Origin: an uncultured Ruminococcus sp.
Lineage (GTDB): Bacteria > Bacillota > Clostridia > Oscillospirales > CAG-272
Length of the DNA stretch: 54,603 nt
Direction of reading: 5' to 3'
NCBI GenBank assembly: GCA_902778145.1
Contig: CACYWW010000009.1
Span: forward strand, 1 to 54,603
The notes under the pieces were generated by a model. That model had not been told where the DNA came from. It saw only the letters and a list, made by a program, of their open reading frames with translations, and did no database searches. Each line of letters starts with the position of its first letter. Within the stretch, counting starts at the first letter, position 1. Positions 11,421-48,415 of this stretch are shown here, piece by piece. The position numbers were made by a program, and so were the translations under genes.

Positions 11421-11421
11421 C

Positions 11422-12648: not shown

Positions 12649-12658
12649 GGTCCCTCCG

Positions 12659-13062: not shown

Positions 13063-14271
<1,209 letters not shown>

Positions 14272-14275
14272 TGTC

Positions 14276-18890: not shown

Positions 18891-18900
18891 ACGGTCCCCC

Positions 18901-22041: not shown

Positions 22042-22052
22042 ATGAGTCTCCT

Positions 22053-23462
22053 TCATTCCGACAGCACCTTAAGCGCCGGGTACAGTTTCTTATATACCTC
22101 GAAGCCTTTATCATATTTTTCGTGAACACGGGGATCCGGGCTTGCCGCGAGGTGCTTTTTCACCGTCGACGCGGCGCATTCCTTCAGCGTTTTATATTCT
22201 CCGCAGCCGACCATCGCGAGCATCGCCGCGCCGAACTGCTCCGTGTCCGTAACGTATATATCGACTCCGAGCACGTTTGACACAACCGTCTGCCAGAGCG
22301 GGCTTTTCGCGCCGCCGCCGCAGAGCACGGCTTCCTTTACGCTCACGCCGCCCGATACGATACAGTCCCGCAGGGCGTACGATACGCCCTCATACAGCGA
22401 AAGACACATATCCTGCCGCGTCGTTTCCGCCGAAAGCCCGACGAACGCACCGCGCGCCTTTACGTCGTTGTGGGGGCAGCGTTCGCCCGTAAGATACGGC
22501 AGGAAATACACGCCGGTCGACGCCGCTTTATCAAGTGTGAATTTATCGTAATCCGTGTGAAGTATCCGTTTCGTCCACCAGTCGTCACAGCTCGCCGCGG
22601 AAAGGATACATCCCATAAGATGATATTTCCCCGTGCTGTGGCAGAAGTTGTGGAGCGTCTTCCCGGCGCCCGGTCTGAATTCATCGCACGGCAGAAACAC
22701 CGTTCCGCTAGTACCGAGAGATATACTGCAGTCGCCGTCGGACAAAACGCCGCAGCCGACGGCGGAGGCGGCGTTGTCGCCCGCGCCCGCGCACATAACG
22801 GCGTTTTTCAGGCCGTATTCCGGCTTGAGCGGTCCGGTCACTTCACAGCTTTCGTAAAGCGCGGGGAGCATATCCGGGGAGATACCGCAGATACGGCACA
22901 TCGTCTCCGACCATTTTTTATGCTCAACGTCAAGCAGAAGCATTCCCGCGGCGTCCGAATAATCCGTTGAAAAGACGCCGGTGAGCTTATAAGCGAGATA
23001 GTCCTTCGGCAGACATATCCTGCGGCATCGCGCGAAATTCTCCGGTTCGTTTTCGGCGACCCACAGTATCTTCGGCGCCGTGAAGCCCGGGAAAGCGGTA
23101 TTCCCGGTCTCCGCGAACGTCTCCGGGATGCTGTTCAGATACGCCGTCTGCTTTTCGCTTCTGCCGTCGTTCCAGAGGATCGCCTCACGGATGACCGCGC
23201 CGTTTTCGTCAAGCATTACGAGACCGTGCATCTGCCCGGCTATGCTCACACCCTTTATTTCGTCCTCTCTGCCGCGGCTGAGCCCGGAAAGGATCGTTTC
23301 TGCCGCCGAGAGCCAGTCCGCCGGATCCTGCTCGCTGTATCCCGGCGCCGGGTAATGAACGTCGTATTTTACGCTTCTCGATCCGTATACGTTTCCCTCG
23401 CCGTCGACGACGGTCCCCTTACAGGAGCTCGTGCCGAGGTCGATGCCTATATAGTAATTCAT
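22053..23462 (-). CDS. xylB: xylulokinase
   Basis: Phosphorylates D-xylulose to xylulose-5-phosphate for the pentose phosphate pathway. FGGY-family motifs are plain: phosphate-1 loop YYIGIDLGTSSCKGTVVD at the N-terminus, GQMHGLVMLDENG near residue 75, LWNDGRS, and phosphate-2 SLGTSGTVFL near residue 245. The catalytic Asp lies in GAGDNAASAVG. Length from the ATG at 23462 is 469 residues, slightly short but within the usual range. That ATG follows GGAGGG four bases upstream. An ATG six codons earlier overlaps the Shine-Dalgarno sequence. With xylA in the same operon it completes xylose conversion. Confidence 0.93.
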   Translation of the reverse strand: MNYYIGIDLGTSSCKGTVVDGEGNVYGSRSVKYDVHYPAPGYSEQDPADWLSAAETILSGLSRGREDEIKGVSIAGQMHGLVMLDENGAVIREAILWNDGRSEKQTAYLNSIPETFAETGNTAFPGFTAPKILWVAENEPENFARCRRICLPKDYLAYKLTGVFSTDYSDAAGMLLLDVEHKKWSETMCRICGISPDMLPALYESCEVTGPLKPEYGLKNAVMCAGAGDNAASAVGCGVLSDGDCSISLGTSGTVFLPCDEFRPGAGKTLHNFCHSTGKYHLMGCILSAASCDDWWTKRILHTDYDKFTLDKAASTGVYFLPYLTGERCPHNDVKARGAFVGLSAETTRQDMCLSLYEGVSYALRDCIVSGGVSVKEAVLCGGGAKSPLWQTVVSNVLGVDIYVTDTEQFGAAMLAMVGCGEYKTLKECAASTVKKHLAASPDPRVHEKYDKGFEVYKKLYPALKVLSE

Positions 23463-23476
23463 TTTACCCTCCGTTT

Positions 23477-26377
23477 TCACGAATAGAATCTGATTTCAAG
23501 AATGCCGACGAAGGTGGCGTTCGGATTGTGAATCGCAAGCCATACGTCGCCGTTATAGTTTATTTCCGACAGATCTATCACGGCGTCTCTCGCTCCGGCT
23601 GCCCACGAGCGGTTTGAAAACACCATTTCGGTATGAACTATATCTCCGTCAAAATCCACGTTCTGTTCATATCCGTATGATGAATCCCTGCTTTTGAGTC
23701 CGATCGCAAGCGAGGGCGAGGCTGCGAAGCGTTTTTCCGTGATCTCCGTTCCGTCGCAGCAATACGTTATTTCGACACGCGAATAATCCGAAAGATCCAC
23801 GTTTCCGAGATACGCGGTATAACCGAACTTAAGATAGATATAAGGGTCATAAATGCCCGCCGGCGCGCCTTCCTCGCTGTATGCCTTCTGATCCTTCATG
23901 GTCGAAAAGTCGACCTTCCACGCCGGCAGCTCCGGCATGTTCTCCGGCTTTTCGTGGTAAAATCCCGAAGCGCCGGACAGCGCGACCGACGGCTTTCCGC
24001 CTTTGCATTCGGCGTATTCGACCCTGATCCGGTGCAGGCCATTTTCAAGTATGATCGCGCCCGACGCCGTGCGTTCGCCCGTAAGCGAAGGATCGTATGA
24101 GCCGTCGGCGACGAGCCGTCCGTCGATATAAAGCACCGCGCCGCCCGTAAACGTCAGCGTGAATCCGTATTTTTTCGTCTCCTCCGCTTTGATGAAGCCT
24201 TCGAACAGCGCGGCGGTATTGCCGCCCTCCGGAAGCTTGTCCGCGCCGACGCCGTCCGTTACGGTGTATCCCGACAGAAGACCGGATATCAGCCGCAGAT
24301 CAGGCTGCGCCGGATAACCGGCGGGCAGCGGATAAAGCGAAAGAAGAAGTCCGGGTTCGGGTTCGGGTTTGGACGCATTTATCTGCACGGTCTTCATTCC
24401 CTTGACGCCGTCCGCGCCCCGCGGAAGTATCTTTTCGGTTTTTCCGTCATACGCGACGGCGATATCCGCGGCATAATCGTTCCTGCGTTCCGGCGCGCTG
24501 TCTCCGGTCGTGAACCACGATTCAAGGCTGTATATGTCGGTCACGTTGTCGGACCAGTGGAAATTGATCTTAACACCGTCGCCCGTAAGTCCGAGAAGCG
24601 ATCGCGGTACGGTAACCGCCATCCTGTCGTTTTTCAGCGCGTACGGCACGCATCCGATCTGCTGCCATACGCCGTCCTTATACGCGCAGAGCGACGTTGC
24701 TGTATCCGATATGACGTCATAATTCAGAAGAAAGTCGTATCCCTCCCAGCCGGTGCTCTTGTCATCGTCCGCGTCGATAAACAGGAGCATCCAGTTTGAA
24801 GCGTCTTTATAAGACGTTACGGGCTCCTTTGTCCTCACATAGAAATAAACGTTCGAGCCGTTCGCCGTTATGCGTGATTCGATCATATCGTTTCTGCCGG
24901 TGTCGTTGACGTAGCGCAGCTTTCCCGTGGTATCAGTATGATCGCGGCGGGACGTGTCGCCTTCAAAATCCGTATAAATGGGGTAAACGCTCTCCCATTT
25001 TTCGAAAACGTCCGGATCCGTCTCGCTCATCGTATGCCTGCCGGACGCGCCGTCCGCCGGCAGAACGCCCTTGAACCGGCGGATTATCGAACACATCTGA
25101 TAAAAGTAGTTGTCCGTATAGCCGCCCTTCATCGGCTCTATGTCCCGGGAAAACTCCGGGTTGAACTGATCTACGAATCCGGTATCGGTATGGTGCTCCT
25201 CCGTAAAATTCTGCGCGACCCACTCGTTCCACCGGGAGATCAGAAGCACCTCGCATTCGGGGTTCTTCTTCATCAGCTGCTTGAAAGCGGTTTCGAACAC
25301 CGTGCCTTTACCCATCGTATCCGTCTCGAGAAATGCGTTGAGGTACTTTTTTGCCGAGCGCGAACCGCTTCTGCCGGCTCCGAAATTCGCAAAGCCGGCG
25401 CAGCCGATGCCGGTGCATTCCGCGGTTTCCCTGTTTTCGACCCAACCGTAGCCGTAACCGAAATTAACTATGCGGTTGTCCTCCCAGTACATTTCACTGT
25501 ACTGCTCCGGGCTGACCCATGACTTTCTGAAGGTGAGCTTGTCCCTATAGTATTCATCCTTCATTATCGGGAACGTGCCGTCGTCAAGAGGCTTTGCCAT
25601 GGCGAGAGGCTTGCCGTCCCAATAAAACCACAGATCCTTATACTTTTCATCCGTCATGAAAAGCTCGTAGTATTTTCCGAGATCTCCTTTGCCCTTGACA
25701 GCGGAGGCGAAGCCCCACGGCACGATATAAGGCGTCATCTGACCGTTCGCACGCATTTCCGCACACGTGTCGAGCAGTACCTTCTGCGTATCCTCGTACA
25801 GATATCCGTTCGTCAGATCGACGTATATAAAATCCACGCCGGCCATCGCAAAATAATACATGTCGCGCTTTATCTGCCATACGTCGTCGGCTCTGTGGTA
25901 TCCCGTCTCCGGCTCCGACCACCAGCAGAAGCCCCAGCGCGGTCCGAAATTCGGATTGTACGGATCTGACGCGATGGCTTTGGCGTTGTCAACGTCGCAG
26001 GTGGATCCGGTCGTCCAGACAAGGTAGAACAGACCGACGTATTTATCCTTTTTCGGCAGTCCGGCGGTCTCCGACGTCGGCAGCACTCTTCCGAGCGCGT
26101 CCGTCGCAGTTTCATTGTAATTTGTTATGAGTATCTGCGGAGATCTTCCCTTTTCCGTCAGCACCTGCCCCGAAGGCGACGCCGGCGTGAACGTAAGAAG
26201 ATCGAGGCTTTTTTGCGGTACCGACGTATCGTCCGGCGCATCCGTTATATCCGGCGCGACGGTCTCCGTAACGTCGTCCGCCGTACCGGTCGTCTCCGCT
26301 TCGTGCGTACATGACGCAGCAAAAAGCATAACTCCGGAAATAACGAACGCAAGCGCCCGTTTGATCGTTTTTTTCAT
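23477..26377 (-). CDS. secreted lipoprotein, TIM-barrel glycosidase-like with binding domains
   Basis: A 966-residue exported protein. A lipoprotein signal ends in FAASC (Cys near residue 23), followed by a Thr/Asp-rich linker. Residues ~100-450 look like a TIM-barrel hydrolase of the GH71/GH99 type (YVGLFYLVWTTGS, AGVDFIYVDLTNGY, VLLISRWNEWV). Next come a CBM9-like domain (NVYFYVRTKEPV, MLLFIDADDDKSTGWEGYDF), a PA14-like domain at ~690-800 (FEGFIKAEETKKYGFTLTF, AVLYIDGRLV) and a C-terminal beta domain. It is the only protein of the locus with an export signal, so it probably meets the polysaccharide at the cell surface, with the GH43/GH51 enzymes finishing inside. Enzyme family and activity are uncertain. 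Confidence 0.7.
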   Translation of the reverse strand: MKKTIKRALAFVISGVMLFAASCTHEAETTGTADDVTETVAPDITDAPDDTSVPQKSLDLLTFTPASPSGQVLTEKGRSPQILITNYNETATDALGRVLPTSETAGLPKKDKYVGLFYLVWTTGSTCDVDNAKAIASDPYNPNFGPRWGFCWWSEPETGYHRADDVWQIKRDMYYFAMAGVDFIYVDLTNGYLYEDTQKVLLDTCAEMRANGQMTPYIVPWGFASAVKGKGDLGKYYELFMTDEKYKDLWFYWDGKPLAMAKPLDDGTFPIMKDEYYRDKLTFRKSWVSPEQYSEMYWEDNRIVNFGYGYGWVENRETAECTGIGCAGFANFGAGRSGSRSAKKYLNAFLETDTMGKGTVFETAFKQLMKKNPECEVLLISRWNEWVAQNFTEEHHTDTGFVDQFNPEFSRDIEPMKGGYTDNYFYQMCSIIRRFKGVLPADGASGRHTMSETDPDVFEKWESVYPIYTDFEGDTSRRDHTDTTGKLRYVNDTGRNDMIESRITANGSNVYFYVRTKEPVTSYKDASNWMLLFIDADDDKSTGWEGYDFLLNYDVISDTATSLCAYKDGVWQQIGCVPYALKNDRMAVTVPRSLLGLTGDGVKINFHWSDNVTDIYSLESWFTTGDSAPERRNDYAADIAVAYDGKTEKILPRGADGVKGMKTVQINASKPEPEPGLLLSLYPLPAGYPAQPDLRLISGLLSGYTVTDGVGADKLPEGGNTAALFEGFIKAEETKKYGFTLTFTGGAVLYIDGRLVADGSYDPSLTGERTASGAIILENGLHRIRVEYAECKGGKPSVALSGASGFYHEKPENMPELPAWKVDFSTMKDQKAYSEEGAPAGIYDPYIYLKFGYTAYLGNVDLSDYSRVEITYCCDGTEITEKRFAASPSLAIGLKSRDSSYGYEQNVDFDGDIVHTEMVFSNRSWAAGARDAVIDLSEINYNGDVWLAIHNPNATFVGILEIRFYS

Positions 26378-27837: not shown

Positions 27838-28932
27838 CTATCTGCAGAAGTCATATACCGTCTGATACATTTCGAACACGTTCTCCGTCGGGCTGTTGTC
27901 CTGTATCGCGTGGGTCGGGGCGAAATGATATCCGCCGTAAGGCTTCATCATTTCAAGGATATCCGTGCAGTTCGCCCTGACGTCCGCGGGCGTCCCGTAC
28001 GCGAGAGGCCCGGCCGTTGAGATGCACCCTCTCAGATTGAGCCTTCCGCCGAAATGATCGAGCAGCCAGCGCGGGCTCATGTTCGCCGCCTCCGGCTGAA
28101 GCGTATCCACGCCTTTGACGCCCATTCCAATGAAATCCTCATACGCCCACGACGAAGATCCGCACGTATGTATCATGACGGGCAGACCGTACGACTTTGC
28201 AAGATCGACGAACTGCTTCTGTATCGGCTTTATCGTTTTTCTGTACAGCTCAAGGCTGATCATCGGCGCGATCTGTGTGCCGAGATCCTCTCCGAGCCAG
28301 ATGAAATCTATCTCTCCGCGGCACGCCTCAAGCGTTCTTTCCATTATTTCAAGCGAGGATCGCGCACGGCGGCGGATAAGCCTCATCGGCGCCTCGTCCT
28401 CGAGGATGAGATGGCAGAGCGTGTCCTCCATCCCCATTATCCTGCCGTTGGAGTTGATCACGTCCGGCACGCCGGGGTCGCCCAGATGGAGGGCGAACAG
28501 CCCGCCGTAAGAGCGCGCGAGCTCAGCCGCCGCGCCGTAGTCGAAATCGTCCGGCGACGGCACGGGATAGTTATCGAACTCCTCGTCGTCCGCGTCCTTC
28601 AGAGGGAAATCGCAGAAATCCCAGTATCCGCCTGTTTCATGCGCCACCCAGCGCATGATAAACCCCTCGAGCGGGTCGCGCTGTCTGCCCTCCGGCACGT
28701 CGAAAAGCCGCGGTCCCTTGTACGGCGCGGCGATCCTGCGGTAATCCACGCCGAGCAGCCTCATGAAGGTTTCGTGACTTTCATTCTGTACGCCGAGGTA
28801 TTCTTTGAGTCGTCTGTCGATGCCGCCGTTCGCTTCATAGCCTATCGGCGGTCTGTCCGTTTTTTCAAATTCGAACGTCGCCCTGACGCGCTGTCTGCCC
28901 GTCATCGTTTCGGTCATCCTGTTAAGTTTCAT
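27838..28932 (-). CDS. UroD-family protein (methyltransferase-like)
   Basis: A 364-residue member of the uroporphyrinogen decarboxylase superfamily. Many members outside heme operons are corrinoid methyltransferases or unassigned proteins linked to sugar loci. MTGRQRVRATFEFEKTDRPPIGYE is the usual N-terminus and MIHTCGSSSWAYEDFIGMGVKGVDTLQPE holds the His/Cys pair that binds zinc in the methyltransferase branch. GRLNLRGCIST follows. No heme gene is nearby, so true uroporphyrinogen decarboxylase is unlikely. The ATG has GGAG six bases upstream. It stands alone between a terminator upstream (29021-29045) and the hairpin at 27792-27823. The substrate is unknown. Confidence 0.75.
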   Translation of the reverse strand: MKLNRMTETMTGRQRVRATFEFEKTDRPPIGYEANGGIDRRLKEYLGVQNESHETFMRLLGVDYRRIAAPYKGPRLFDVPEGRQRDPLEGFIMRWVAHETGGYWDFCDFPLKDADDEEFDNYPVPSPDDFDYGAAAELARSYGGLFALHLGDPGVPDVINSNGRIMGMEDTLCHLILEDEAPMRLIRRRARSSLEIMERTLEACRGEIDFIWLGEDLGTQIAPMISLELYRKTIKPIQKQFVDLAKSYGLPVMIHTCGSSSWAYEDFIGMGVKGVDTLQPEAANMSPRWLLDHFGGRLNLRGCISTAGPLAYGTPADVRANCTDILEMMKPYGGYHFAPTHAIQDNSPTENVFEMYQTVYDFCR

Positions 28933-29020
28933 GATACACTCCGGATCGTTTATTTTTTGTTTTCATCATCCCGGTCTCACGCGCGTGCGCGTTTGTCCGG
29001 CGCCGGCGCGGAGTATAAAG

Positions 29021-29045
29021 AAAAACCGGTGCGGGACCGGTTTTT
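29021..29045 (-). terminator. intrinsic terminator after the isomerase gene
   Basis: AAAAACCGGT-GCGGG-ACCGGTTTTT, a perfect 10-base stem. On the minus strand it is nine bases past the stop at 29054 and is followed by CTTT. Confidence 0.8.
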
Positions 29046-29053
29046 CCGTTATA

Positions 29054-29881
29054 TCAGTATCCGAGCGACCTCAGATATCCGCGGCTTATCTTCGCCGCCT
29101 CGAGCGTGGGCATATCCTTCGATTCGTCCTGTTCGACTATGATGTACTCGATACCGACACGCTTCGCCGCCGCGAGGATAGCCGGGAAGTCCTGCATACC
29201 CATACCGAGCGGACGGAAAGCGAATCCGTTGTCTTCCTTCGACTGCTTCGGCTTTGCTTTTCCGCTGTCGTCGATCAGCGCGTAAACGGGGCCGTCGGCG
29301 AGCTTTCTGCAGGTGAAATCCTTAAGATGGAGCGTATGCATCCTGCCCGCATATTTTTCTATGAAGGCCGCGGGATCGACTCCGGCGTATTTCGCCCAGC
29401 AGGTATCGACCTCACCCTCTATAAGATCGGGCATGGCGGCGTATATCCGCTCAAGTATGAATTCCCCGTCGAGATAATTGAACTCGAAATCGTGGTTGTG
29501 ATACGTGAGCTGTATACCGTTCTTCTTCAGAAGCTCGCCCACCTGTCTGAACTTCGCCATCGTGGCGTCGAAATTGCCGTTCTGGTAGTTTTCGATCCCG
29601 TACCACGGTATAGCCGAATAACGGGCGCCGATCGTCTTCAGGAAGTCGACCGCCTCCTGCCCCTGTTCAAGGAACAGATCGGGTCCCTGGTGGACGGACG
29701 GGCACGTGAGCCCGAGCTCGTCGAGCATGCTTCTGATCTCGGCGGCGTTGTGTCCGTAGTATCCCGCGAACTCAACGTGATCGTACCCCGCTTCCTTTAC
29801 CTTTTTCAGCGTGCCGAAGAAATTCTTCTCCATCTCATCCCTTACGGAATAAAGCTGCAGACCGACCTTGAAATCACTCAT
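29054..29881 (-). CDS. sugar phosphate isomerase/epimerase-like TIM-barrel protein
   Basis: A 275-residue AP-endonuclease-2/xylose-isomerase-like TIM barrel. The N-terminus KVGLQLYSVRDEMEKNFFGTLKKV and the middle QLTYHNHDFEFN are characteristic. EVDTCWAKYAGVD, MHTLHLKDF and YIIVEQDES carry metal-binding Glu, Asp and His residues. Such proteins usually work with Gfo/Idh/MocA dehydrogenases, which is exactly the gene 12 bases upstream, so the pair probably epimerises or isomerises a keto-sugar or inositol-like compound. The substrate cannot be named. AGAGG precedes the ATG. The transcript ends at the hairpin just downstream. Confidence 0.85.
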   Translation of the reverse strand: MSDFKVGLQLYSVRDEMEKNFFGTLKKVKEAGYDHVEFAGYYGHNAAEIRSMLDELGLTCPSVHQGPDLFLEQGQEAVDFLKTIGARYSAIPWYGIENYQNGNFDATMAKFRQVGELLKKNGIQLTYHNHDFEFNYLDGEFILERIYAAMPDLIEGEVDTCWAKYAGVDPAAFIEKYAGRMHTLHLKDFTCRKLADGPVYALIDDSGKAKPKQSKEDNGFAFRPLGMGMQDFPAILAAAKRVGIEYIIVEQDESKDMPTLEAAKISRGYLRSLGY

Positions 29882-29893
29882 ATGGCACCTCTC

Positions 29894-31072
29894 TTAAATC
29901 TCCGGGATATCGATGACGACCTCGTGACCCGTCTTGCCGGATCTTACGATACCGTCGATTATCGCCTGGTTGTAAACTATCTGAGACGACGGGACGGGAG
30001 CCTTGCCGCCGGTCTTCACGGCGTCGAGGAACGAGCGGATCTTGTGATAGAACTCGCCCTCCTTCGTGTTGCTCAGCATCGGTACGGTCGTGGAAACGCC
30101 CACGTCCGTGCCGGCAACGTCGTGATATATCGTCATCGGACCGCCGATAGAACCGTTCCAGCACTCGGTCGACGGGATACGCAGGGAAGCCTTCGTACCC
30201 ATGATTATCGTGTCGCCGGAGGTGTCGAGATTCATTGCCCAGGCTATACGGAAGTCGAGGATTATACCGCCCTCGAGACGGACGAGGCCCGCCGCGAAAT
30301 CGTCAACGCCGAACTCCTCCGAATATTCCTCGGGCTTATGCTCCGCTCTCCAGTATTCCTTGCTCTTGCCGAAGAAATCGGAGGTGTAGCCGGTAACGGT
30401 GAGGGGCTTCGGATATCCGATGGCGTTCAGGACCATATCGAGCGAATAACAGCCGATGTCGCCCATGGCGCCGATGCCGCCGGTCTTCGCCGAGATGAAC
30501 GAGGTGCCGAACGGGGTCGGTATCCCTCTTCTTCTGCCGCCGCCGGTCTGTATGTAGTAGATCTTTCCGAGCTCGCCGGATTCGACTATTTTCTTTATCA
30601 TCTGCATATTCGGATTGAATCTCGGCTGGAAGCCGATGGAGAGGACCTTGCCGCTCTTTTTCTCGGCTCTCATGACGTCGAGCGCCTCGTCAAGCGTTAC
30701 GGTGAACGGCTTTTCGAGCAGAACGTTCACACCGTGCTCGAGCGCGTCTATCGCGCAGGGCGCGTGCTGGGTGTTGTAGGTGCAGACAGATACCGCGTCG
30801 AGCTCCGGCTCGTTTTCGAGCAGCTCGTGGCACGACAGATAGCAGCGCGCCTCCGGATATCCCCACGCGTTCATGAAATCGGACGCCTTGCCGGGGATGA
30901 GATCCGCCGCCGCGACGATCTCAACGTCGGCCATTTTTTTGTATTCCTGCATATGCGCGCCGGCTATCCAGCCGGTGCCGATGATCGCTACCTTGAGTTT
31001 TTTCGAGGTATCCACGACGACCTCGGTCTGATCTTCCTTGAAGGCGTCAAGACTCGTCACTTTTTTTGCCAT
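29894..31072 (-). CDS. Gfo/Idh/MocA-family oxidoreductase
   Basis: NAD(P)-dependent sugar or inositol dehydrogenase-like protein of 392 residues. After ~25 extra N-terminal residues the Rossmann fold starts KVAIIGTGWIAGAHMQEYKKM. The family lysine is in VLLEKPFTVTLDEAL (EKP motif near residue 120). The substrate domain has GGIGAMGDIGCYSLDMVLNAIG with the conserved Asp and a His-poor region. The Shine-Dalgarno sequence is GGAAGGG. It is transcribed from a strong promoter with the isomerase behind it. The N-terminal extension (KKVTSLDAFKEDQTEVVVDTSK) is unusual but has no signal-peptide character. Confidence 0.87.
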   Translation of the reverse strand: MAKKVTSLDAFKEDQTEVVVDTSKKLKVAIIGTGWIAGAHMQEYKKMADVEIVAAADLIPGKASDFMNAWGYPEARCYLSCHELLENEPELDAVSVCTYNTQHAPCAIDALEHGVNVLLEKPFTVTLDEALDVMRAEKKSGKVLSIGFQPRFNPNMQMIKKIVESGELGKIYYIQTGGGRRRGIPTPFGTSFISAKTGGIGAMGDIGCYSLDMVLNAIGYPKPLTVTGYTSDFFGKSKEYWRAEHKPEEYSEEFGVDDFAAGLVRLEGGIILDFRIAWAMNLDTSGDTIIMGTKASLRIPSTECWNGSIGGPMTIYHDVAGTDVGVSTTVPMLSNTKEGEFYHKIRSFLDAVKTGGKAPVPSSQIVYNQAIIDGIVRSGKTGHEVVIDIPEI

Positions 31073-31123
31073 ATGTATTCCCTTCCTGTACTTTCGGATC
31101 CTTTCATGGGATCTTTTTTCTTT

Positions 31124-31153
31124 ATTATATCACCCGATCAGTTGATTTGTCAA
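31124..31153 (-). promoter_or_regulatory. promoter of the dehydrogenase-isomerase pair
   Basis: Minus-strand TTGACA (31148-31153), 18-base spacer, TATAAT (31124-31129). Both boxes match consensus fully. Confidence 0.8.
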
Positions 31154-31194
31154 TACCATTCTTAAAAGAATCGGCGCCGCGTCCGCCTCCCGGA

Positions 31195-37844: not shown

Positions 37845-38132
37845 ATGAATATAAATACAGACAAGATCGTATCCATATCCGACGCCAACCGCAACTTTTC
37901 ACAGACCGCGCGTCTCGCTGACAAGCTCGGAGAGGTCTACATTTTCAAGAACAACAAGCCGAAATACAAGCTGACGGTCATAAGCGAAGACGAGCTGACG
38001 GCGGGACTTCCCGCGGAGCCTTCCGAAGGTCAGGAGGTCAGCAAGAGCAAGCTCGACCGTCTCATGGCTCTGATCAGAAAATACCGCAGCGGGCTTGAGG
38101 AGCTGCTCCGGATATCGGATAAACAGCTGTAA
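37845..38132 (+). CDS. Phd/YefM-like antitoxin-family DNA-binding protein
   Basis: A 95-residue protein whose first 55 residues (IVSISDANRNFSQTARLADKLGEVYIFKNNKPKYKLTVIS) match the Phd/YefM antitoxin fold: ISDANRNFS helix, then the strand that ends in the NNKPKY turn. The C-terminal 40 residues (SKSKLDRLMALIRKYRSGLEELLRI) are a charged helix, where antitoxins normally hold their toxin. No Doc, RelE or YoeB-like toxin lies on either side. The next gene, 44 bases downstream, is an acyltransferase. AAGGAGG is seven bases before the ATG, behind two perfect promoters and a palindrome. It may now be a stand-alone repressor of the downstream lipid genes. That role is inference. Confidence 0.8.
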   Translation: MNINTDKIVSISDANRNFSQTARLADKLGEVYIFKNNKPKYKLTVISEDELTAGLPAEPSEGQEVSKSKLDRLMALIRKYRSGLEELLRISDKQL

Positions 38133-38176: not shown

Positions 38177-38935
38177 TTGAAGGACAGGATACAGTATTAC
38201 ATAAGCGAGGACGAGGAGTTCTCCGGGACCGATTTCAACGGTCGGAAGGTCGACGGCGATTACGTCTACATAAGAAACGGCGTGGGGACGCGCATACTTT
38301 ACAGCGTCATAGCGCGGCCGATCGCGTTTCTTTACTCGAAGCTCGTGCTCCGCCAGAAGACGGTCGGGCGGAAAAAGCTGAAGGGCTTCAGAAATACCGG
38401 GATATACGTTTACGGCAACCACACTCAGCGTACCGGCGATCCCTTCATGCCGAATTCGTTCCTGTTTCCGAAGAGGGTATATTTCGTCGTCCACCCGGAC
38501 AACATTTCGATACCCGTTCTCGGAAAATACACGCCGGCGCTCGGCGCTCTTCCGCTGCCCGGCGATATGAAGGCGTACCGCAATTTTCTCTCCGCGCTTG
38601 ACACCCGGACGGGCGAGGGCGGCGCCGTCGTCATATATCCCGAGGCGCATATCTGGCCGTATTACACGAAGATCAGGGATTTTCCCGACACGTCGTTCGG
38701 CTATCCGTGCCGCGGAAATACGCCCGTGTTCTGTTTCACCAACACGTACAAAAAAAGCCGGCTTTTCGGAAAGCCGCGCGTGGTGACTTATATCGACGGT
38801 CCGTTTTATCCCGACACGGAGCTGCCGCTGAAAAAACGTACGAAGGATCTGCGCGACCGCGTTTACGACGCGATGTGCGCCCGCGCCGCCCTCTCGGACT
38901 GCGAATACATCAAATATATCAAAAAGGAAGGCTGA
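38177..38935 (+). CDS. PlsC-like lysophospholipid acyltransferase
   Basis: A 252-residue acyltransferase of the 1-acylglycerol-3-phosphate type. The acceptor/catalytic box is YGNHTQRTGDPFMP near residue 78. Here five residues separate His and Asp, where the usual motif has four. GAVVIYPEAHIWPYYTKIRDF is the equivalent of the EGT box. The N-terminus (MKDRIQYYISEDEEFSGTDFNGRKVDGDYVYIRN) is a family-like lead, with one hydrophobic stretch YSVIARPIAFLYSKLVL. The start is TTG at 38177 with GGAGG five bases upstream. No better ATG exists. It is followed after one base by a GT8 gene, so lipid and glycan steps are made together. Confidence 0.82.
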   Translation: MKDRIQYYISEDEEFSGTDFNGRKVDGDYVYIRNGVGTRILYSVIARPIAFLYSKLVLRQKTVGRKKLKGFRNTGIYVYGNHTQRTGDPFMPNSFLFPKRVYFVVHPDNISIPVLGKYTPALGALPLPGDMKAYRNFLSALDTRTGEGGAVVIYPEAHIWPYYTKIRDFPDTSFGYPCRGNTPVFCFTNTYKKSRLFGKPRVVTYIDGPFYPDTELPLKKRTKDLRDRVYDAMCARAALSDCEYIKYIKKEG

Positions 38936-38936
38936 C

Positions 38937-39776
38937 ATGGTCAATATACTGTTCTGCGGGAACGGATACGTCTTTGACGGGATGCTCACCTGCGCCCTCT
39001 CCATCCTGAAGCGCTCCGAGAGCACGGAGCCGTATACGTTCTACGTATACACGATGGACGTTTCACATCTGAAACCCGCGTACACGCCGATACCCGATCC
39101 GATGATCGGATTCTTCGATACGGTCATCAAGTCGTACAACCCCGAAAACAGAGTCGTGAAGACAGACGTTACGGATCTTTATATGAAGCATTTCTCCGGC
39201 TGTCCGAACGAGGGCGCCTACTGCTCGCCTTACACGCTGATACGGCTTTTCGCCGATCTCATAGACGGGATGCCGGACAAGCTTTTGTATCTCGACGCGG
39301 ATATAATGTTCAACCGTGACATACACCTTCTGTATGATACGGATATAAGCCTTGTCGAATACGCCGCGGCGAGAGACCACTACGGAAAATATCTGCTGAA
39401 CCCGAACTACGTCAACGCCGGCGTCCTGCTGTTCAATATGAAAAAGATAAAAGAGACGGGACTTCTTGAAAAAGCCCGCGGCTGGATAAAAAAGCAGAAG
39501 CTCACGTTTGCGGATCAATCCGCGATAATCAGGTCCACTACCTCGAAAAAAATGCTCCCGCAACGTTTCAACGATCAGAAATTCCTGCACAAGCACACCG
39601 TGGTGCGCCATTTTTCAAAGCGGCTCTTCTGGCTGCCGTATCCGCACACGGACAACATAAAGCAGTGGCACGTCAGCCGCGTCCACAAGGTCTTCGGATA
39701 TTACTGCTTCGACGATATCCTGTACGAATACATATATCTGAAGAAAAAATATGAAACCGAGGTCGACCCCAGATGA
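38937..39776 (+). CDS. GT8 family glycosyltransferase
   Basis: Retaining glycosyltransferase of family 8 (galactosyl- or glucosyltransferase-like), 279 residues. The metal/nucleotide-sugar DxD is in LLYLDADIMFNRD near residue 120, with NAGVLLFNMKKIKETGL and DQSAIIR following, and the C-terminal KQWHVSRVH resembles the family's second metal-binding His motif. No membrane segment, so it acts on the cytosolic face. The sugar and acceptor are unknown. It starts one base after the acyltransferase stop and overlaps the next gene by 4 bases (ATGA). Confidence 0.87.
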   Translation: MVNILFCGNGYVFDGMLTCALSILKRSESTEPYTFYVYTMDVSHLKPAYTPIPDPMIGFFDTVIKSYNPENRVVKTDVTDLYMKHFSGCPNEGAYCSPYTLIRLFADLIDGMPDKLLYLDADIMFNRDIHLLYDTDISLVEYAAARDHYGKYLLNPNYVNAGVLLFNMKKIKETGLLEKARGWIKKQKLTFADQSAIIRSTTSKKMLPQRFNDQKFLHKHTVVRHFSKRLFWLPYPHTDNIKQWHVSRVHKVFGYYCFDDILYEYIYLKKKYETEVDPR

Positions 39777-41533
39777 GCAGAAAAAACATACCCATTTTCT
39801 TCGCGTGCGACGACAACTTCGTAAAATTCACGATCGTTTCGCTCTTTTCGATAAAAGAGAACGCGTCAAAGGAGAATCATTACACGGTCTACGTCCTTCA
39901 CACGGGCATAACGAGCGCGATGATGGAAAAGCTGTACGAGCTCCAGGACGAGAACTTCACCGTGATCTTCCGTGACGTAACGGATTATCTCTACTCCATC
40001 TCCGACAAGCTCCCGATCAGGGATTATTATTCAAAAACAACGTATTACAGAGTCTTCATCGCGGAAATGTACCCGGAATACGACAAGGCGATATACATAG
40101 ACAGCGACACCGTGGTACAGGGAGATATAAGCGAGCTTTACGACACCGACATAGACGACTGCTACGTCGGCGCGTGCCACGAGCAGGTGATGGTGCAGGT
40201 GGACGAATTCGGCACATACGTCGAGCGCGTCATCGGGATCGACCGCAACAACTTCTTCAACGCGGGACTTTTGCTCATCAACTGCGTAGAATTCCGCGAG
40301 CATATGGTGCTCGACAAATTCGTGCATTATCTGAAGCAATACACTTTCGTCGTCACGCAGGACGAGGATTATCTCAATCTCATCTGCAAGGACCGCGTCT
40401 TCTGGCTCGATCAGAGGTGGAACACCGAGGTGTTCGGAGAGATACCGTATCCCGCGGAGGAGGCGAAGATGATCCATTACATAATGGTCAACAAGCCGTG
40501 GCACTACGAGGACTGCCGCTTCGGCGACATTTTCTGGAAATACACGGAAAAAACGAGCGTATACGGGGAGATAAAGCAGATCCTCGATTCATACCCGGAG
40601 GAGAAAAAGCAGCGCGACACGTTGTCTGCCGAAAACCTCGTGAAGCTCGCAGTGGAGGAGACCCTGCGCACGGACAATTTCAAAAACCGTCAGGATTCTC
40701 TGAAGGATCAGGGCAGAGTCGCGGTAGTAAAGAAGATAGAGGAATACGAGCGCGCCGGCAGATTTGCCGAGGACGTCGAGGACGACCCGCCGACGATACC
40801 GCTCGACCCGGACGATATAGATTATCTGCGCCGTTCCCCGCTCGCGAAGGCGCGCACGGCGGCGGCGTTCTCCGCGGCGAGACGCTTCGTCAACAGGCTG
40901 ACCGACGACAAAAAGCTGATAATAAAGGAGATCCGCGGGATCGAGAACCTGACCGGGCTCGAGACCGGCGCGGTACTCACCTGCAACCACTTCAACGCCT
41001 TCGACAGCTTTGCGATGCAGATCGCCGTGGACAGCGCGAAGCTGAAAAACAGAAAGCTTTACCGCGTGATCCGGGAGGGCAACTACACGTCCTTCCCCGG
41101 CTTCTACGGTTTTCTGATGAGGAACTGCAACACGCTGCCGCTGTCGTCGAACCATAAGACGCTGAAGAAATTCATGGAGGCGACCGATACGCTCCTCGGC
41201 CGCGGACATCTCGTCCTCGTCTATCCCGAGCAGAGCATGTGGTGGAATTACCGCAAGCCGAAGCCGCTGAAAAACGGCGCGTTCACGTTCGCCGTCAAAA
41301 ACAACGTCCCGGTCATACCGTGCTTCATAACGATGAGGGACACGGACCTTGTCGGAGACGACGGATTTTTCGTGCAGGAATACACGATACACATAGGCAA
41401 GCCTCTCGAGCCGGACAGAGATCTTCCGTATTCAAAGAAAGTCCAGGCTCTGGCGGATGAGAACTACAGGATCTGGAAGGAGATCTACGAACGTGAATAC
41501 GGAATGCCGCTGCGTTATACGACAGAAACATAA
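39773..41533 (+). CDS. fusion of GT8 glycosyltransferase and PlsC-like acyltransferase
   Basis: A 586-residue protein. Residues 1 to ~275 are a GT8 domain: IPIFFACDDNFVKFTIVSLFS at the N-terminus, the DxD in AIYIDSDTVVQGDISELY, NFFNAGLLLINCVEFRE and TQDEDYLNLICKDRVFWLDQRWN. A charged linker of about 75 residues follows (~280-355). Residues ~360-586 are an acyltransferase with the box LTCNHFNAFDSFAM (normal H-x4-D) near residue 400 and LVYPEQSMWWNYRKPKPLKNGAF. The two halves match the two stand-alone genes just upstream in kind but not closely in sequence. Joining sugar and acyl transfer in one chain suggests both act on the same lipid-linked acceptor. Confidence 0.85.
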   Translation: MSRKNIPIFFACDDNFVKFTIVSLFSIKENASKENHYTVYVLHTGITSAMMEKLYELQDENFTVIFRDVTDYLYSISDKLPIRDYYSKTTYYRVFIAEMYPEYDKAIYIDSDTVVQGDISELYDTDIDDCYVGACHEQVMVQVDEFGTYVERVIGIDRNNFFNAGLLLINCVEFREHMVLDKFVHYLKQYTFVVTQDEDYLNLICKDRVFWLDQRWNTEVFGEIPYPAEEAKMIHYIMVNKPWHYEDCRFGDIFWKYTEKTSVYGEIKQILDSYPEEKKQRDTLSAENLVKLAVEETLRTDNFKNRQDSLKDQGRVAVVKKIEEYERAGRFAEDVEDDPPTIPLDPDDIDYLRRSPLAKARTAAAFSAARRFVNRLTDDKKLIIKEIRGIENLTGLETGAVLTCNHFNAFDSFAMQIAVDSAKLKNRKLYRVIREGNYTSFPGFYGFLMRNCNTLPLSSNHKTLKKFMEATDTLLGRGHLVLVYPEQSMWWNYRKPKPLKNGAFTFAVKNNVPVIPCFITMRDTDLVGDDGFFVQEYTIHIGKPLEPDRDLPYSKKVQALADENYRIWKEIYEREYGMPLRYTTET

Positions 41534-41581
41534 AACAACTGAAACAAGGCGTTGACACGCCGTAAAAAACACGAGGTACGG

Positions 41582-43045
41582 ATGATGAAGAAAAAACTTA
41601 CCGTTCTGCACAGCAACGACATCCACGGTGACTTCCTGCCCAAGCGGGGAGCGCACGGCATCTTCGAGGGAGGTCTTTCCCGGCTTTCGGGATACGTCAA
41701 AAAGGTCAGGAGCGAGGAGGAAAACGTGATCCTTGCGAACGCCGGAGATATGTTCCGCGGCTCCATCATAGACTCCGAATTCATGGGACTTTCGACGATC
41801 GCGCTGATGAACATGCTCTCGCCCGACGTCATGACCGTCGGCAACCACGAGGTCGACTACGGTATCGCGCATCTTCTTTTCCTTGAAAAATGCGCCAGAT
41901 TCCCGATAATCAACGCGGATCTGTACATAACCCTGAACAACACGCGTCTGTTCCGTCCGTATATCAATATAGAGGTCGGCGGCATGCGGGTCATGTTCAT
42001 AGGGCTGCTCACAGAGGAGGTCATCAGCTCCACGAAAAACGAGCGCGTCATCGGCTCGTACATAAACGTCGCGGAAGCGGCGAAGGAGGTCGGTATAATC
42101 GCGGACAACTACCGCACAAAGGACACGGATATACTGATCCTTCTGACGCACATCGGCATTGAAAAAGACCGCGAGCTCGCCGCCCTGCTCGATCCGGACT
42201 GGGGCGTGGACATGATAATCGGCGGCCATTCCCACACGTTCATGGAACAGCCCGAGACCGTGAACGGGATACAGATAGTACAGGCGGGCACGGGCTCCGG
42301 TCAGATCGGCAGATTCGATATAGAATACGACGACGAGGAGCGGAAGATAACAAGATCCGAATGGCGCCTGCAGAAGATCAACGAGAGCACCGCACCGGCG
42401 GATCCTCTGATCGACACGCTGCTCGATACGTACAAAACGCAGACCGACGCGAAATACCACCGTATAGTGACCGGCTTCGCCCGCGAGCTCACGCACCCGA
42501 GCCGGATACAGGAGACCGAGATGGGCAACCTCTACTCGGATCTTCTGCAGGAGGATTCGAGCTTCGACATAATGATGATGGGCTCCGGCGCCATACGCAA
42601 AAAAGCGATGGGACCGATAGTCGAGTATCAGGACATGCTGGAAAACACGCCGTTCGACGACCAGCTCTGGATGATAAAGGTCACGGGAGACGAGTTCCGC
42701 CGCATGGTGAAATATATAATGCGCGACGACGCGTGGGAGGGACACACGGAGTTCTACCAGTTTTCAAAGGGCGTCCGCATAGTATACAGGAAGAGCACGC
42801 ACACGCTTGAAGAGCTGTCGTTCCGCGGCAGGGAGGTCGCTGACGGCGACGAATTCCTCATAGCGATGCAGACGTATCACTTCAACAATTTCGAGGAATT
42901 CTTCAACGTTCCGGTCGAACCCATAAAAAAACGCATGCGTCCGCGCGTCGTGGCGACGTCGGTCAACAATATAGTCGAGGAGTATTTCACAACGCATCAG
43001 AACCTCGACGCTCACGTCGAGGGCAGGATAACGATACTCGACTGA
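41582..43045 (+). CDS. YunD/UshA-like metallophosphatase (5'-nucleotidase family)
   Basis: Two-metal phosphoesterase of about 487 residues. Metal sites are visible in LHSNDIHGDF (D, H), NAGDMFRGS, GNHEVDYG, LLTHIGIEKD and IIGGHSHTF. The C-terminal ~200 residues are the 5'-nucleotidase C-terminal domain. There is no signal peptide, unlike periplasmic UshA, and the layout fits cytosolic YunD-type proteins. Nucleotide or sugar-nucleotide substrates are probable, which would fit a role behind glycosyltransferases that release UDP/GDP. Two consecutive ATGs (41582, 41585) follow GAGGTACGG and either could be used. It closes the acyltransferase/GT8 operon before a strong terminator. Confidence 0.87.
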   Translation: MMKKKLTVLHSNDIHGDFLPKRGAHGIFEGGLSRLSGYVKKVRSEEENVILANAGDMFRGSIIDSEFMGLSTIALMNMLSPDVMTVGNHEVDYGIAHLLFLEKCARFPIINADLYITLNNTRLFRPYINIEVGGMRVMFIGLLTEEVISSTKNERVIGSYINVAEAAKEVGIIADNYRTKDTDILILLTHIGIEKDRELAALLDPDWGVDMIIGGHSHTFMEQPETVNGIQIVQAGTGSGQIGRFDIEYDDEERKITRSEWRLQKINESTAPADPLIDTLLDTYKTQTDAKYHRIVTGFARELTHPSRIQETEMGNLYSDLLQEDSSFDIMMMGSGAIRKKAMGPIVEYQDMLENTPFDDQLWMIKVTGDEFRRMVKYIMRDDAWEGHTEFYQFSKGVRIVYRKSTHTLEELSFRGREVADGDEFLIAMQTYHFNNFEEFFNVPVEPIKKRMRPRVVATSVNNIVEEYFTTHQNLDAHVEGRITILD

Positions 43046-45826: not shown

Positions 45827-47809
45827 TCAAAGATCATCCGGCAATCTGTGATTTACACAGTATTCAAGACAGTTCAGAACTTCGTCGACCGTTATGCTGC
45901 CGGTCCGGCCGGCTCCCATATCCTCGTTGAAGAGATAAAAGCCGAACGAATTGTGATAATCCCTGCTTTCCCTGTCCGTTATATTGCGCTCGTATATCAC
46001 GCACTTTCTGTCCATATCAATGAATATGCGTTCATAGCACTTGTCGCCGCTGTTTTTTATATCATACGTATAGCCCGCCATGCCTGTCCTGTTGCTGCGC
46101 CACGACGCGGAAAAGAACTTTTCCGCCCGGCCGAGACCTTCCAGCACTTCTTCAAAGCTGTCGCTTTCATTTACTATGTCGCAGACGGTCTGAAGATCGA
46201 GCTTCGGATATCCGTATTCCTCCCGGAGTCCGAGACGCTTCAGATCCGTATAGAGCAGGATATGTGCCTCCGGAACGGATCCGTCGACGCCGCGGCGCTT
46301 CAGCAATTCGTCGATCCCGTCGCCTGTCGCGCGGGAATACTCTACGTCTATCCCGAGGTATGTGTTATCGATATATTCCTTTACTTTTTCGATCTCTTTT
46401 GTATCAAGCTTCTCTCCGTTCCTTTCACGGATAATATAACCCGCGAATTCTTCAGCCGATATTAAATCGGTTTTACTTGTTTCGATTTCAGCGGATTCAG
46501 CCGTATTGTCAGAATTCGTTTCCGGATTCTCGGTTTGTTGTTTGTCGTCGGTCGATCCATCGGGATCCGCGGAAGTGCCTGCGTGCGGAGTTTCCTCTCC
46601 GGTCATGGTCTGTCCCGATGCGGCACCGACGTATTCGGCTACCTTTACGGCGTACCGTTTCTCCGTTTTTCCGGCTACACCGTCTTCACCGACTTTCTTT
46701 TCTTTTATTACGACCTCGACCCACAGCCCGTCTTCCGCGGGTATGGCGGTACAGGAAACCTTTTTCCTCAAAACTCCCGGAATATTTTCATCCGACGCGC
46801 TGCAGATCCTGTTTCTGTCAAGCTTTATACCGCTGAAAGGCTCAAGCGCCTTGTCATACAGCTCGCCGCGGAATTCGAGGACCGTCCCGTCGTTTCTTAT
46901 GACGGCTTTTACGTCGTCTCCGCGTCTTATACCGTCAGTCTCCCTGTAAAAGGTGAACGTGTATTCGGCTCTGAAATCCCTGTCTTCTTTCGTGTAATTT
47001 CTGAAATCCGCGGTCTTATCTTCATCGGTGGATACGTGGATGAGGGACGGCTCGGTCACGTGCGTGTCAACGTCATATTTCCATTCCCTCGCGTCGACGC
47101 CGGTGTATTCAAGGATAACGGCTCTCGCGTAATCCGCGTAATCCTTCTCCGTTGAATCTTCATTGATAGGACCCGTGAACGTAAGCGTGTCTGGCGTCTC
47201 GTCCGGACTGTACGTGTATCTTACGATCCCTCCGGTCACCTCATCAAACCATAACGCCGCAAACGCACCCTCAGTCCCGTTCCAGTACATATCGGCGCCG
47301 TGGCCCCTTTTGAATATATTTTGAGTCCATTCATAACGAAGGCTGTATTCTTTTCCAAACACCGTTTCGGTTTTATCCGGAACGTTTTCCTTTTTATAGT
47401 TTTCAAATGCATGCAGATTATCAAGGATCTTTCCCTCTTTCTGGGATGACAAATCTGCCGCCTGATATTCCACTGTACGGTATTCAGACAATTCCACGGC
47501 TTTTCTTGTTTCGATTTCAGCGGATTCAGCCGTATTGTCAGAATTCGTTTCCGGATTAGCGGCACCGACGTTCCTGTGCGCGTCCTCATACGCTTTCTTT
47601 GCGACCGGTATCAGGCACACGGCAAACAGTGACACGATGAGAAGTCCCGCGGCCGCAGCCGAAAGAACGCTCAGAAATCCGTGCCGAAAGGACGGCTCCG
47701 CGTCCGTGCCGGTATTTTTTATTTGAGCTTTGAGGATCGCTCCCTTCCTCTCCCGGATGAGAGCGTCAGCCTCCGTATTGAGAAGCCTTTTCATATCCCG
47801 CTCACTCAT
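45827..47809 (-). CDS. large membrane-anchored anti-sigma-like partner of the ECF sigma factor
   Basis: A 660-residue protein directly after an ECF sigma gene. The short cytosolic N-terminus (MSERDMKRLLNTEADALIRERKG) is where an anti-sigma region would lie. One helix follows (LSVLSAAAAGLLIVSLFAVCLIPVA, ~residues 45-70) and then ~590 extracytosolic residues in two parts. The parts are separated by a linker, and the sequence NPETNSDNTAESAEIET occurs identically before each part (~residues 85 and 430). The first part contains YDVDTHVTEP and RFRAEYTFTFYRE-like strands. The second ends in EVLNCLEYCVNHR. I recognise no catalytic motif. The ATG at 47809 follows AGAGGTGAT. A GTG three codons earlier overlaps the sigma stop. 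Pairing with the sigma gene suggests, but does not prove, anti-sigma function. Confidence 0.65.
   Translation of the reverse strand: MSERDMKRLLNTEADALIRERKGAILKAQIKNTGTDAEPSFRHGFLSVLSAAAAGLLIVSLFAVCLIPVAKKAYEDAHRNVGAANPETNSDNTAESAEIETRKAVELSEYRTVEYQAADLSSQKEGKILDNLHAFENYKKENVPDKTETVFGKEYSLRYEWTQNIFKRGHGADMYWNGTEGAFAALWFDEVTGGIVRYTYSPDETPDTLTFTGPINEDSTEKDYADYARAVILEYTGVDAREWKYDVDTHVTEPSLIHVSTDEDKTADFRNYTKEDRDFRAEYTFTFYRETDGIRRGDDVKAVIRNDGTVLEFRGELYDKALEPFSGIKLDRNRICSASDENIPGVLRKKVSCTAIPAEDGLWVEVVIKEKKVGEDGVAGKTEKRYAVKVAEYVGAASGQTMTGEETPHAGTSADPDGSTDDKQQTENPETNSDNTAESAEIETSKTDLISAEEFAGYIIRERNGEKLDTKEIEKVKEYIDNTYLGIDVEYSRATGDGIDELLKRRGVDGSVPEAHILLYTDLKRLGLREEYGYPKLDLQTVCDIVNESDSFEEVLEGLGRAEKFFSASWRSNRTGMAGYTYDIKNSGDKCYERIFIDMDRKCVIYERNITDRESRDYHNSFGFYLFNEDMGAGRTGSITVDEVLNCLEYCVNHRLPDDL
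46476..46528 (-). repeat. 53-base direct repeat, copy 1
   Basis: Identical base for base to 47505-47557, in the same frame of the same gene, encoding the second NPETNSDNTAESAEIET linker. The perfect identity points to recent duplication or ongoing recombination. Confidence 0.9.
47505..47557 (-). repeat. 53-base direct repeat, copy 2
   Basis: Partner of 46476-46528, encoding the first linker just outside the membrane helix. Recombination between copies would remove 1029 bases (343 codons, in frame) and leave a shorter protein with only the second extracytosolic part. Confidence 0.9.
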
Positions 47810-47814
47810 TTTTA

Positions 47815-48339
47815 TCACCTCTGTCCGTAGTATTTTTTCATTTTTTCCACCGCTCTTCTGTACCGTTTCTGCACGGCGGCTTCGTTCTCCGAAGTTTCCG
47901 CGGCGATCTTTTTGAATTTCATGCCGCAGAGAACGTGGAGCGTGACAACGCGCTTTTCCTCCGGCGCGAGCCTGTCGAGCGCGTCGAGCAGCGTCAGAGA
48001 CGAAGCGACATCCGTCTCCTCCGCAGGGAGTTGTTCCGCCTCCTCAAGCTGTTCCGTTCCCCGCCTTTTCCGCAGACGGTTGAGCGCCTGATTGCGCGCG
48101 ATCGATATCACCCAGGCGCACGCGTCCCCGCCCGAGTACGATCCCGCGCTTTCCAGCACCTCAACGAACGTGTCCTGCGCCGTGTCCTCCGCGTCGCACC
48201 GCTGCCCGAGTACGGAATAGGCGGTGAAATATACTTTTTTGCCTATCAGGTCGTACAGCTCCGAGAGCGCTCCGGAATCGCCCCGGGCTATACGTTCAAG
48301 CGCCCTTTTGCAAAGCGCTTTTCTTTTTGTATCGCCCAT
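47815..48339 (-). CDS. ECF-type RNA polymerase sigma factor
   Basis: A 174-residue sigma-70 family member with only regions 2 and 4. Region 2 is LSELYDLIGKKVYFTAYSVLGQRCDAEDTAQDTFVEV with the typical DAEDTAQDTF and WVISIARNQALNRLRKRR. Region 4 at ~120-165 is LAPEEKRVVTLHVLCGMKFKKIAAETSENEAAVQKRYRRAVEKMKK, a helix-turn-helix. ATG at 48339 is preceded by a TTG codon that is better spaced from GGAG, so the true start may be 48342. It overlaps or touches the following membrane gene, the usual arrangement for a sigma factor and its controller. Target promoters are unknown. Confidence 0.92.
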   Translation of the reverse strand: MGDTKRKALCKRALERIARGDSGALSELYDLIGKKVYFTAYSVLGQRCDAEDTAQDTFVEVLESAGSYSGGDACAWVISIARNQALNRLRKRRGTEQLEEAEQLPAEETDVASSLTLLDALDRLAPEEKRVVTLHVLCGMKFKKIAAETSENEAAVQKRYRRAVEKMKKYYGQR

Positions 48340-48415
48340 CAATTTTTGAATCTCCGATCATCGTGGTTCATATATATAGTAACGCGTAAGAGCGAAAATC
48401 GGACAGATAAATTGT

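What the first reader, a model, noticed from the sequence alone, without database searches (positions are those of the whole stretch)
38177..43045. Acyltransferase / GT8 / GT8-acyltransferase fusion module
Four tightly packed genes: a PlsC-like acyltransferase, a GT8 glycosyltransferase, a single protein carrying both domain types (586 residues, GT8 then PlsC), and a YunD-like phosphatase. Starts and stops of the first three overlap or touch. A fused sugar- and acyl-transferase next to separate copies of both suggests stepwise building of an acylated glycolipid or a lipid-linked glycan. The phosphatase might process the nucleotide by-product. I do not recall a named pathway with this set. Seen: domains, overlaps. 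Known: GT8 and PlsC families. Inferred: the pathway.
Basis: partly seen in the sequence, partly recalled or inferred. Interest (0 to 1): 0.72.

Follow-up and report, generated by a model that had tools for sequence, protein, structure and literature searches.

The report
Gut-bacterial acylated-glycolipid enzyme cassette
A gut-type bacterium carries a compact, widely shared three-gene set whose four enzyme domains (two sugar-adding, two fatty-acid-adding) most likely build a membrane lipid with sugars and extra fatty chains that nobody seems to have described.

Summary
In detail: a PlsC-like acyltransferase (AT1), a GT8 glycosyltransferase (GTa) and a 586-residue GT8+PlsC fusion (GTb-AT2) lie head to tail at 38177-41533. 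The fusion is real and common: 74 of the 80 best related loci keep AT1-GTa-fusion in that order, and no other neighbour recurs in more than 7. The phosphatase adjoins it in 2 of 80 and is not part of the unit. Eleven other loci encode the four domains as separate adjacent genes, in two orders, and the GTb-AT2 join probably arose more than once (one-clade tree p-AU 0.018). A sister form keeps GTb-AT2 and, in 25 of 26 loci, puts a CrtO-family gene (CrtO acylates the sugar lipid in staphyloxanthin synthesis) directly after it; 0 of 19 genomes with the window's triad have CrtO over cut-off. No carotenoid synthase was found in 48 genomes. Some loci have GTb-AT2 with neither partner. Best reading: acylated-glycolipid synthesis, GTb+AT2 as core, GTa+AT1 or CrtO as elaboration. 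Acceptor, sugar, acyl positions and product are inferred. My paper searches found no description. New variant of a known kind.

The parts
38177..38935 (+). AT1: LPLAT-fold acyltransferase, 252 aa, NHTx4D-type (HX5D) motif and YPEAH block
38937..39776 (+). GTa: GT8 glycosyltransferase, 279 aa, DxD D120/D122
   Evidence: (PF01501 52.4 bits)
39773..41533 (+). GTb-AT2: fused GT8 + PlsC-like acyltransferase, 586 aa
39791..40510 (+). GT8 domain of the fusion (residues 7-246), LgtC/WbbM-like; D110, D112, D197-E198-D199, H235, K241 invariant in 53 of 53 aligned
40931..41329 (+). PlsC-like domain of the fusion (residues 387-519); HX4D H406/D411 and E486 invariant in 53 of 53 aligned
41552..43045 (+). 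UshA/YunD-like metallophosphoesterase + 5'-nucleotidase C-domain; neighbour, NOT judged part of the module
   Evidence: adjacent in 2 of 80 related loci
37845..38132 (+). Phd/YefM-like small protein upstream; neighbour, role unknown, not judged part of the module
   Evidence: 22.3 bits, under the 29.8 cut-off; 5 of 80 loci

Best explanation
The three genes are a self-contained cassette that builds an acylated membrane glycolipid on the inner face of the membrane. GTb (retaining GT8, nucleotide-sugar donor) puts a hexose on a lipid acceptor, most likely diacylglycerol, and the fused AT2 then adds a fatty acid to that product, handed over within one protein. GTa adds a second sugar and AT1 a further acyl chain. 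The product would be a tri- or tetra-acyl mono- or diglycosyl lipid. In sister lineages the GTb-AT2 core works without GTa/AT1 and a CrtO-type acyltransferase supplies another acylation. Shown: domains, catalytic residues, conserved order, split forms, CrtO linkage. Inferred: acceptor, sugar, acyl positions, order of steps, product.
For: Triad order kept in 74 of 80 loci while no other neighbour family is in more than 7 of the 80. Gaps of -8 to +20 bases in 66 of 69 AT1-GTa pairs and 59 of 71 GTa-fusion pairs (start codons picked by script). All four domains as separate adjacent genes in 11 loci, 4 with AT1 first and 7 with AT1 last. In a 295-genome family sample 66 of 70 genomes with GTa also match the fusion, against 65 of 225 without GTa (the two draws look like the same set; Fisher p 6.5e-24, not corrected for relatedness). 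Catalytic residues of GTb, GTa and AT2 invariant in the aligned sets. All fused rows held as one clade: p-AU 0.018. CrtO-family gene directly after GTb-AT2 in 25 of 26 class II loci; over cut-off in 0 of 19 triad genomes. In G496 a CrtO gene overlaps a GT28/MGDG-synthase-family gene by 4 bases, and in G038 the two matched domains lie 124 bases apart. PatA, among AT1's structural matches, acylates a mannose of a glycolipid, probably at the cytosolic face (PMC4792965, passages).
Confidence: 0.57

Rival explanations
1. De novo glycoglycerolipid assembly: the GT8 domains glycosylate glycerol or glycerol phosphate and the two PlsC-like domains act as GPAT/LPAAT-type enzymes on the glycerol, so the product is an ordinary (di)glycosyl diacylglycerol made by an unusual route.
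Against: The sister form has AT2 plus CrtO, a family named for acylating a glycosyl group, not glycerol. GTb-AT2 with neither partner would give only a mono-acyl lipid.
Confidence: 0.17
2. The cassette glycosylates and acylates a phospholipid or inositol lipid, a Clostridial counterpart of PIM synthesis, rather than diacylglycerol.
For: PatA is among AT1's structural matches, top by Foldseek E-value, and PatA acylates PIM1/PIM2 mannose.
Against: PIM mannosyltransferases are not GT8 (recalled); PatA scores below PlsC and the GPATs in the second aligner. I did not search for inositol-lipid genes.
Confidence: 0.1
3. The genes decorate a cell-wall or surface polymer or protein: GT8 enzymes add sugars and the acyltransferases anchor or acylate the glycan.
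For: Close GT8 structural matches WbbM, LgtC and GlyE act on O-antigen, lipooligosaccharide and a surface glycoprotein (functions recalled).
Against: No neighbour family other than CrtO and XRE regulators recurs, so no linked flippase, ligase, polymerase or substrate protein; two LPLAT domains and the CrtO link point to lipids.
Confidence: 0.12
4. Unrelated housekeeping genes that happen to lie together.
For: Each domain family is common.
Against: 74 of 80 loci keep the triad, repeated fusion, co-occurrence.
Confidence: 0.02

Closest known systems
Staphyloxanthin terminal steps (CrtQ + CrtO)
   Same: Glycosyltransferase followed by an acyltransferase acting on the glycosyl lipid (PMC12924280, passages); a CrtO-family gene follows GTb-AT2 in the sister form.
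   Different: The glycosyltransferase is GT8; a PlsC-like enzyme goes with it; no PF00494 match in 48 genomes; the window's genome has no CrtO match.
Mycobacterial PIM acylation by PatA
   Same: LPLAT-fold enzyme acylating a glycolipid sugar (PMC4792965, passages); among AT1's structural matches.
   Different: About 10% identity; no inositol lipid shown; glycosyltransferases of another family (recalled).
C. difficile UgtA/UgtB/HexSDF glycolipids
   Same: Clostridial membrane glycolipid synthesis by successive glycosyltransferases (PMC11898633, passages).
   Different: No word beginning with 'acyl' in that paper's main text, so no acyltransferase step is described there; whether its enzymes are GT8 I did not check.
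LgtC / WbbM GT8 glycosyltransferases
   Different: Fused to an acyltransferase; Glu stands at LgtC Gln189 in the window's clade.
Tri-acyl lipoteichoic-acid anchors of lactobacilli (recalled; one search gave only a listing)
   Same: Glycolipid with an extra acyl chain on the sugar.
   Different: Other glycosyltransferases; I recall no known acyltransferase for it.

Membership tests
GT8 (PF01501) | Profile score over cut-off | tested here: met
   GTb 152.7 and GTa 52.4 bits against 24.3
GT8 (PF01501) | DxD metal site and C-terminal His/Lys (LgtC-type; motif recalled) | tested here: met
   GTb D110, D112, H235, K241 in 53 of 53; GTa D120, D122, H225, K228 in 29 of 29
GT8 (PF01501) | GT8 fold | tested here: met
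PlsC/LPLAT (PF01553) | AT2: profile over cut-off and HX4D | tested here: met
   52.7 bits against 23; H406 and D411 in 53 of 53. In split forms the last residue is E in 10 of 35 distinct rows
PlsC/LPLAT (PF01553) | AT1: profile over cut-off | tested here: not met
   22.1 against 23 bits
PlsC/LPLAT (PF01553) | AT1: HX4D spacing | tested here: not met
   HX5D: H82 in 45 of 45, D88 in 44 of 45
PlsC/LPLAT (PF01553) | AT1: LPLAT fold | tested here: met
PatA-type His/Glu relay | Catalytic His plus block-3 Glu | tested here: inconclusive
   H82 and E156 in 45 of 45; geometry not measured
Staphyloxanthin-type acyl-glycosyl carotenoid pathway | CrtO gene in the window's genome | tested here: not met
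   no PF18927 match in G000 (other genomes ring, the 14 standard controls do not); genome 88% complete
Staphyloxanthin-type acyl-glycosyl carotenoid pathway | Carotenoid/squalene synthase (PF00494) | tested here: not met
   0 of 48 genomes; control rings in 7 of 14
PIM synthesis | Inositol lipid acceptor | not testable with these tools
   no product data

The most novel reading that the evidence does not exclude
A new class of membrane lipid in monoderm gut Clostridia: a diglycosyl lipid with three or four acyl chains, in overall shape like lipid A, made by a stand-alone cassette that spreads between families and has repeatedly fused its core glycosyltransferase and acyltransferase, with CrtO or GTa/AT1 as exchangeable second halves.
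Probability: 0.15. Interest if true: 0.8.

Novelty: new variant of a known kind. Interest (0 to 1): 0.55.

Why it matters
Sugar-acylated glycolipids are known in Gram-positive bacteria, but (from recall) most of the acyltransferases that make them are not. A conserved gene set in which the glycosyltransferase and the acyltransferase are fused gives direct candidates. By their record titles the 80 nearest loci come from MAGs of Clostridia, many from ruminant and other animal guts, where membrane glycolipids can bear on host immunity and antimicrobial tolerance (recalled). If the product is multi-acyl and diglycosyl it would be an unrecognised lipid class.

Tried and rejected
Phosphatase as a module member: rejected. 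Toxin-antitoxin reading of the upstream Phd-like ORF: not pursued; weak hit under cut-off, near the module in 5 of 80 loci. Carotenoid acceptor: rejected for these genomes as far as PF00494 shows. GT28/MGDG synthase as universal partner: not found; PF06925 matches in 11 of 48 genomes, over cut-off in 9. In L013/L166 and L022 a gene that looks like one lies about 1.2 kb beyond the fusion, past a kinase-like gene on the other strand (G675 hit), so not counted. Sequence search of solved structures with AT1: no match up to E 1. Paper searches showed no description of the fusion or cassette in their listings; they cover open-licence papers only, and I opened none of those listed except PMC11898633. 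The fold searches on the fusion were filled by GT8 hits, so AT2's fold was not tested by itself; AT2 rests on Pfam and motifs.

Caveats on sets. The alignments used 53 of 79 fusion, 45 of 72 AT1 and 29 of 72 GTa sequences available, plus the window inside those numbers. The tree was a quick one on 76 of 130 distinct loci. In its labels L104, L105 and L106 appear as lacking AT1/GTa because their flanks were short; the longer copies L118, L115, L116 show all four genes. Only the fused/split label is used. The test whether the class II fusions form one clade did not finish. Loci L103-L109 are shorter copies of L114-L120 and were dropped for the counts. L121 (AT1, GTa, AT2, no GTb found), L140 (short GTb), L143 and L145 (incomplete sets) were not placed in a class count except L140, which is in class II. 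The 16 class II genomes were chosen from loci already seen to carry CrtO (L132/G595, the exception, was not among them), so 16 of 16 is not independent evidence; the empty triad genomes are. After this recheck I lowered the main confidence from 0.60 to 0.57 and raised two rivals by 0.02 each, because of the loci with neither partner.

Full report
What is there. The region holds AT1 (38177-38935), GTa (38937-39776) and the fusion GTb-AT2 (39773-41533, 586 aa), with a one-base gap and a 4-base overlap. Pfam gives GT8 for GTa and for residues 7-246 of the fusion, and Acyltransferase for residues 387-519; AT1 falls just short of the cut-off. NCBIfam has no family over its cut-off for any of the three. 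The fusion is the only such gene found in its genome; the other three matches are AT1, GTa and one more acyltransferase-like frame.

Is the fusion real and shared? Of these 80, 79 give a closed full-length fused frame of 585-612 aa, and 74 show AT1-GTa-fusion in order on one strand. Five have the fusion without AT1 and GTa beside it (L013, L020, L021, L022, L080), and one is cut by the contig end (L084). Gaps of -8 to +20 bases separate 66 of 69 AT1-GTa pairs and 59 of 71 GTa-fusion pairs. Clustering of the other ORFs in the 80 loci, many with short flanks, found no other neighbour family in more than 7 loci (a cluster of 15 is the antisense frame of AT1). The phosphatase is beside the module in 2 of the 80 (L005, L006).

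Where does it occur? In a family sample 131 of 295 genomes match the fusion at E 1e-20; by my count of the printed rows 50 of the 131 have one uninterrupted frame across both domains, 47 full length and 3 partial. In an order sample 38 of 295 match. In a phylum sample 2 of 398 match, one being the window's own genome and the other a GT8-only match. Within the genus 7 of 12 genomes, own included, carry it. Six fused copies from other families (58-66% identity) are no more distant than those from other genera of the same family (53-69%, leaving out its 42-46% rows, which are the separately fused sister form). This fits horizontal spread, but I did not test it against housekeeping genes.

Three architectures. 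Class I is AT1-GTa-[GTb-AT2]. A split four-gene form exists in 11 loci, in two orders: AT1-GTa-GTb-AT2 (L115, L119, L162, L163) and GTa-GTb-AT2-AT1 (L116, L117, L118, L155, L156, L157, L159). Class II, 26 loci, is GTb-AT2 without AT1/GTa beside it, as two genes (21) or fused (L126-L130). Three more split loci do not fit neatly: L158 has GTa but no AT1 found, L120 and L160 have neither. In a tree of 76 rows the fused/split label needs four changes: a fused class I clade with a re-split member (L144), and fused class II rows nested among split ones. Holding all fused rows plus L144 together is disfavoured (p-AU 0.018). If so, the same two domains joined in the same order more than once, which is good evidence that they act in sequence.

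The sister form. In class II a gene of Pfam CrtO (glycosyl-4,4'-diaponeurosporenoate acyltransferase) follows AT2 directly in 25 of 26 loci, L132 being the exception (by similarity; the two proteins checked with Pfam score 55.7 and 57.2 bits against 27.3). In 48 chosen genomes CrtO is over cut-off in 16 of 16 class II genomes (chosen from loci already seen to carry it), 0 of 19 triad genomes, 0 of 1 with the fusion but no AT1/GTa beside it (G675, one contig-edge match below cut-off), 2 of 5 split four-gene genomes (G038; G040 by a partial match) and 1 of 7 genomes without a fusion match (G014). Of the 26 class II genomes 23 have no GTa match at E 1e-10 and 21 no strong AT1 match (G514, G595, G873 have both, G880 and G074 AT1 only; weaker AT1 matches are largely AT2 itself). 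So GTb-AT2 works without GTa/AT1 in many genomes, and CrtO and GTa/AT1 look like alternatives, though not strictly: seven loci show neither beside GTb-AT2. G595 fits the alternation, with no CrtO after its GTb-AT2 but an AT1-GTa pair on another contig. PF00494 gave no match in 48 genomes, with 7 of 14 controls ringing, so a carotenoid is unlikely to be the acceptor. In G496 a CrtO gene overlaps a GT28/MGDG-family gene by 4 bases; in G038 the matched domains lie 124 bases apart.

Co-occurrence. In the family sample 66 of 70 genomes with GTa also match the fusion, against 65 of 225 without. The four others are G017, G552, G609 and G719. The same two calls show the core without GTa in 65 of 131 genomes.

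Mechanism. Most likely GTb glycosylates a membrane lipid, AT2 acylates the product, GTa adds a second sugar and AT1 another acyl chain. Evidence for a lipid product is indirect but points one way: two LPLAT domains, CrtO in the sister form, CrtO beside GT28. The acceptor is the weakest link; PF06925 was not found in the window's genome, which leaves open that GTb itself is the first glycosyltransferase.

Verdict. The cassette reads as a new variant of acylated-glycolipid synthesis; it is not filed under the staphyloxanthin or PIM pathways.

Noticed in passing
window 13075-19962: Four GH43-family genes on the minus strand (13075-14271, 16015-17661, 17661-18890, 18901-19962), in a run with long ORFs of no Pfam match and an FGGY kinase (22053-23480): looks like a large plant-glycan utilisation cluster.
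   Followed up: no
window 14276-16018, 19966-22056, 28931-31165, 45827-47818: Long ORFs (580-744 aa) without any Pfam match at 1e-5; the last overlaps the end of a sigma-70 family gene (47815-48342) on the same strand.
   Followed up: no
window 2116-12696: Pyrimidine biosynthesis run on the minus strand: Asp/Orn carbamoyltransferase, phosphoribosyltransferase, dihydroorotate dehydrogenase and its Fe-S subunit, carbamoyl-phosphate synthase large chain, dihydroorotase-like amidohydrolase.
   Followed up: no
L115, L124, L131, L144, L146, L155-L157, L163, L175 and others: XRE/HTH_3 regulators with a hydrophobic C-terminal part recur near both forms of the cassette (31 of the loci held have a homologue, copies included), in L115, L124 and L144 directly beside it. 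The family is common, so some are chance.
   Followed up: partly
L144:4800-6332: AT2 here carries a degenerate GT8-like N-terminus (GTb profile 48.8 bits, no Pfam GT8 match) after a full separate GTb gene: looks like duplication and decay after re-splitting of the fusion; L145 shows the same.
   Followed up: partly
L132-L137, L139, L141, L161 (class II GTb): Nine class II GTb sequences, one clade in the tree, have Ala instead of the last Asp of the DQD motif; 10 of 35 distinct split rows, mostly of the four-gene lineage, have HX4E in AT2.
   Followed up: no
L172:2875-4538 (G595): An AT1-GTa pair stands without GTb-AT2, followed by two ORFs that look like secreted proteins; GTb-AT2 of this genome is on another contig.
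   Followed up: no
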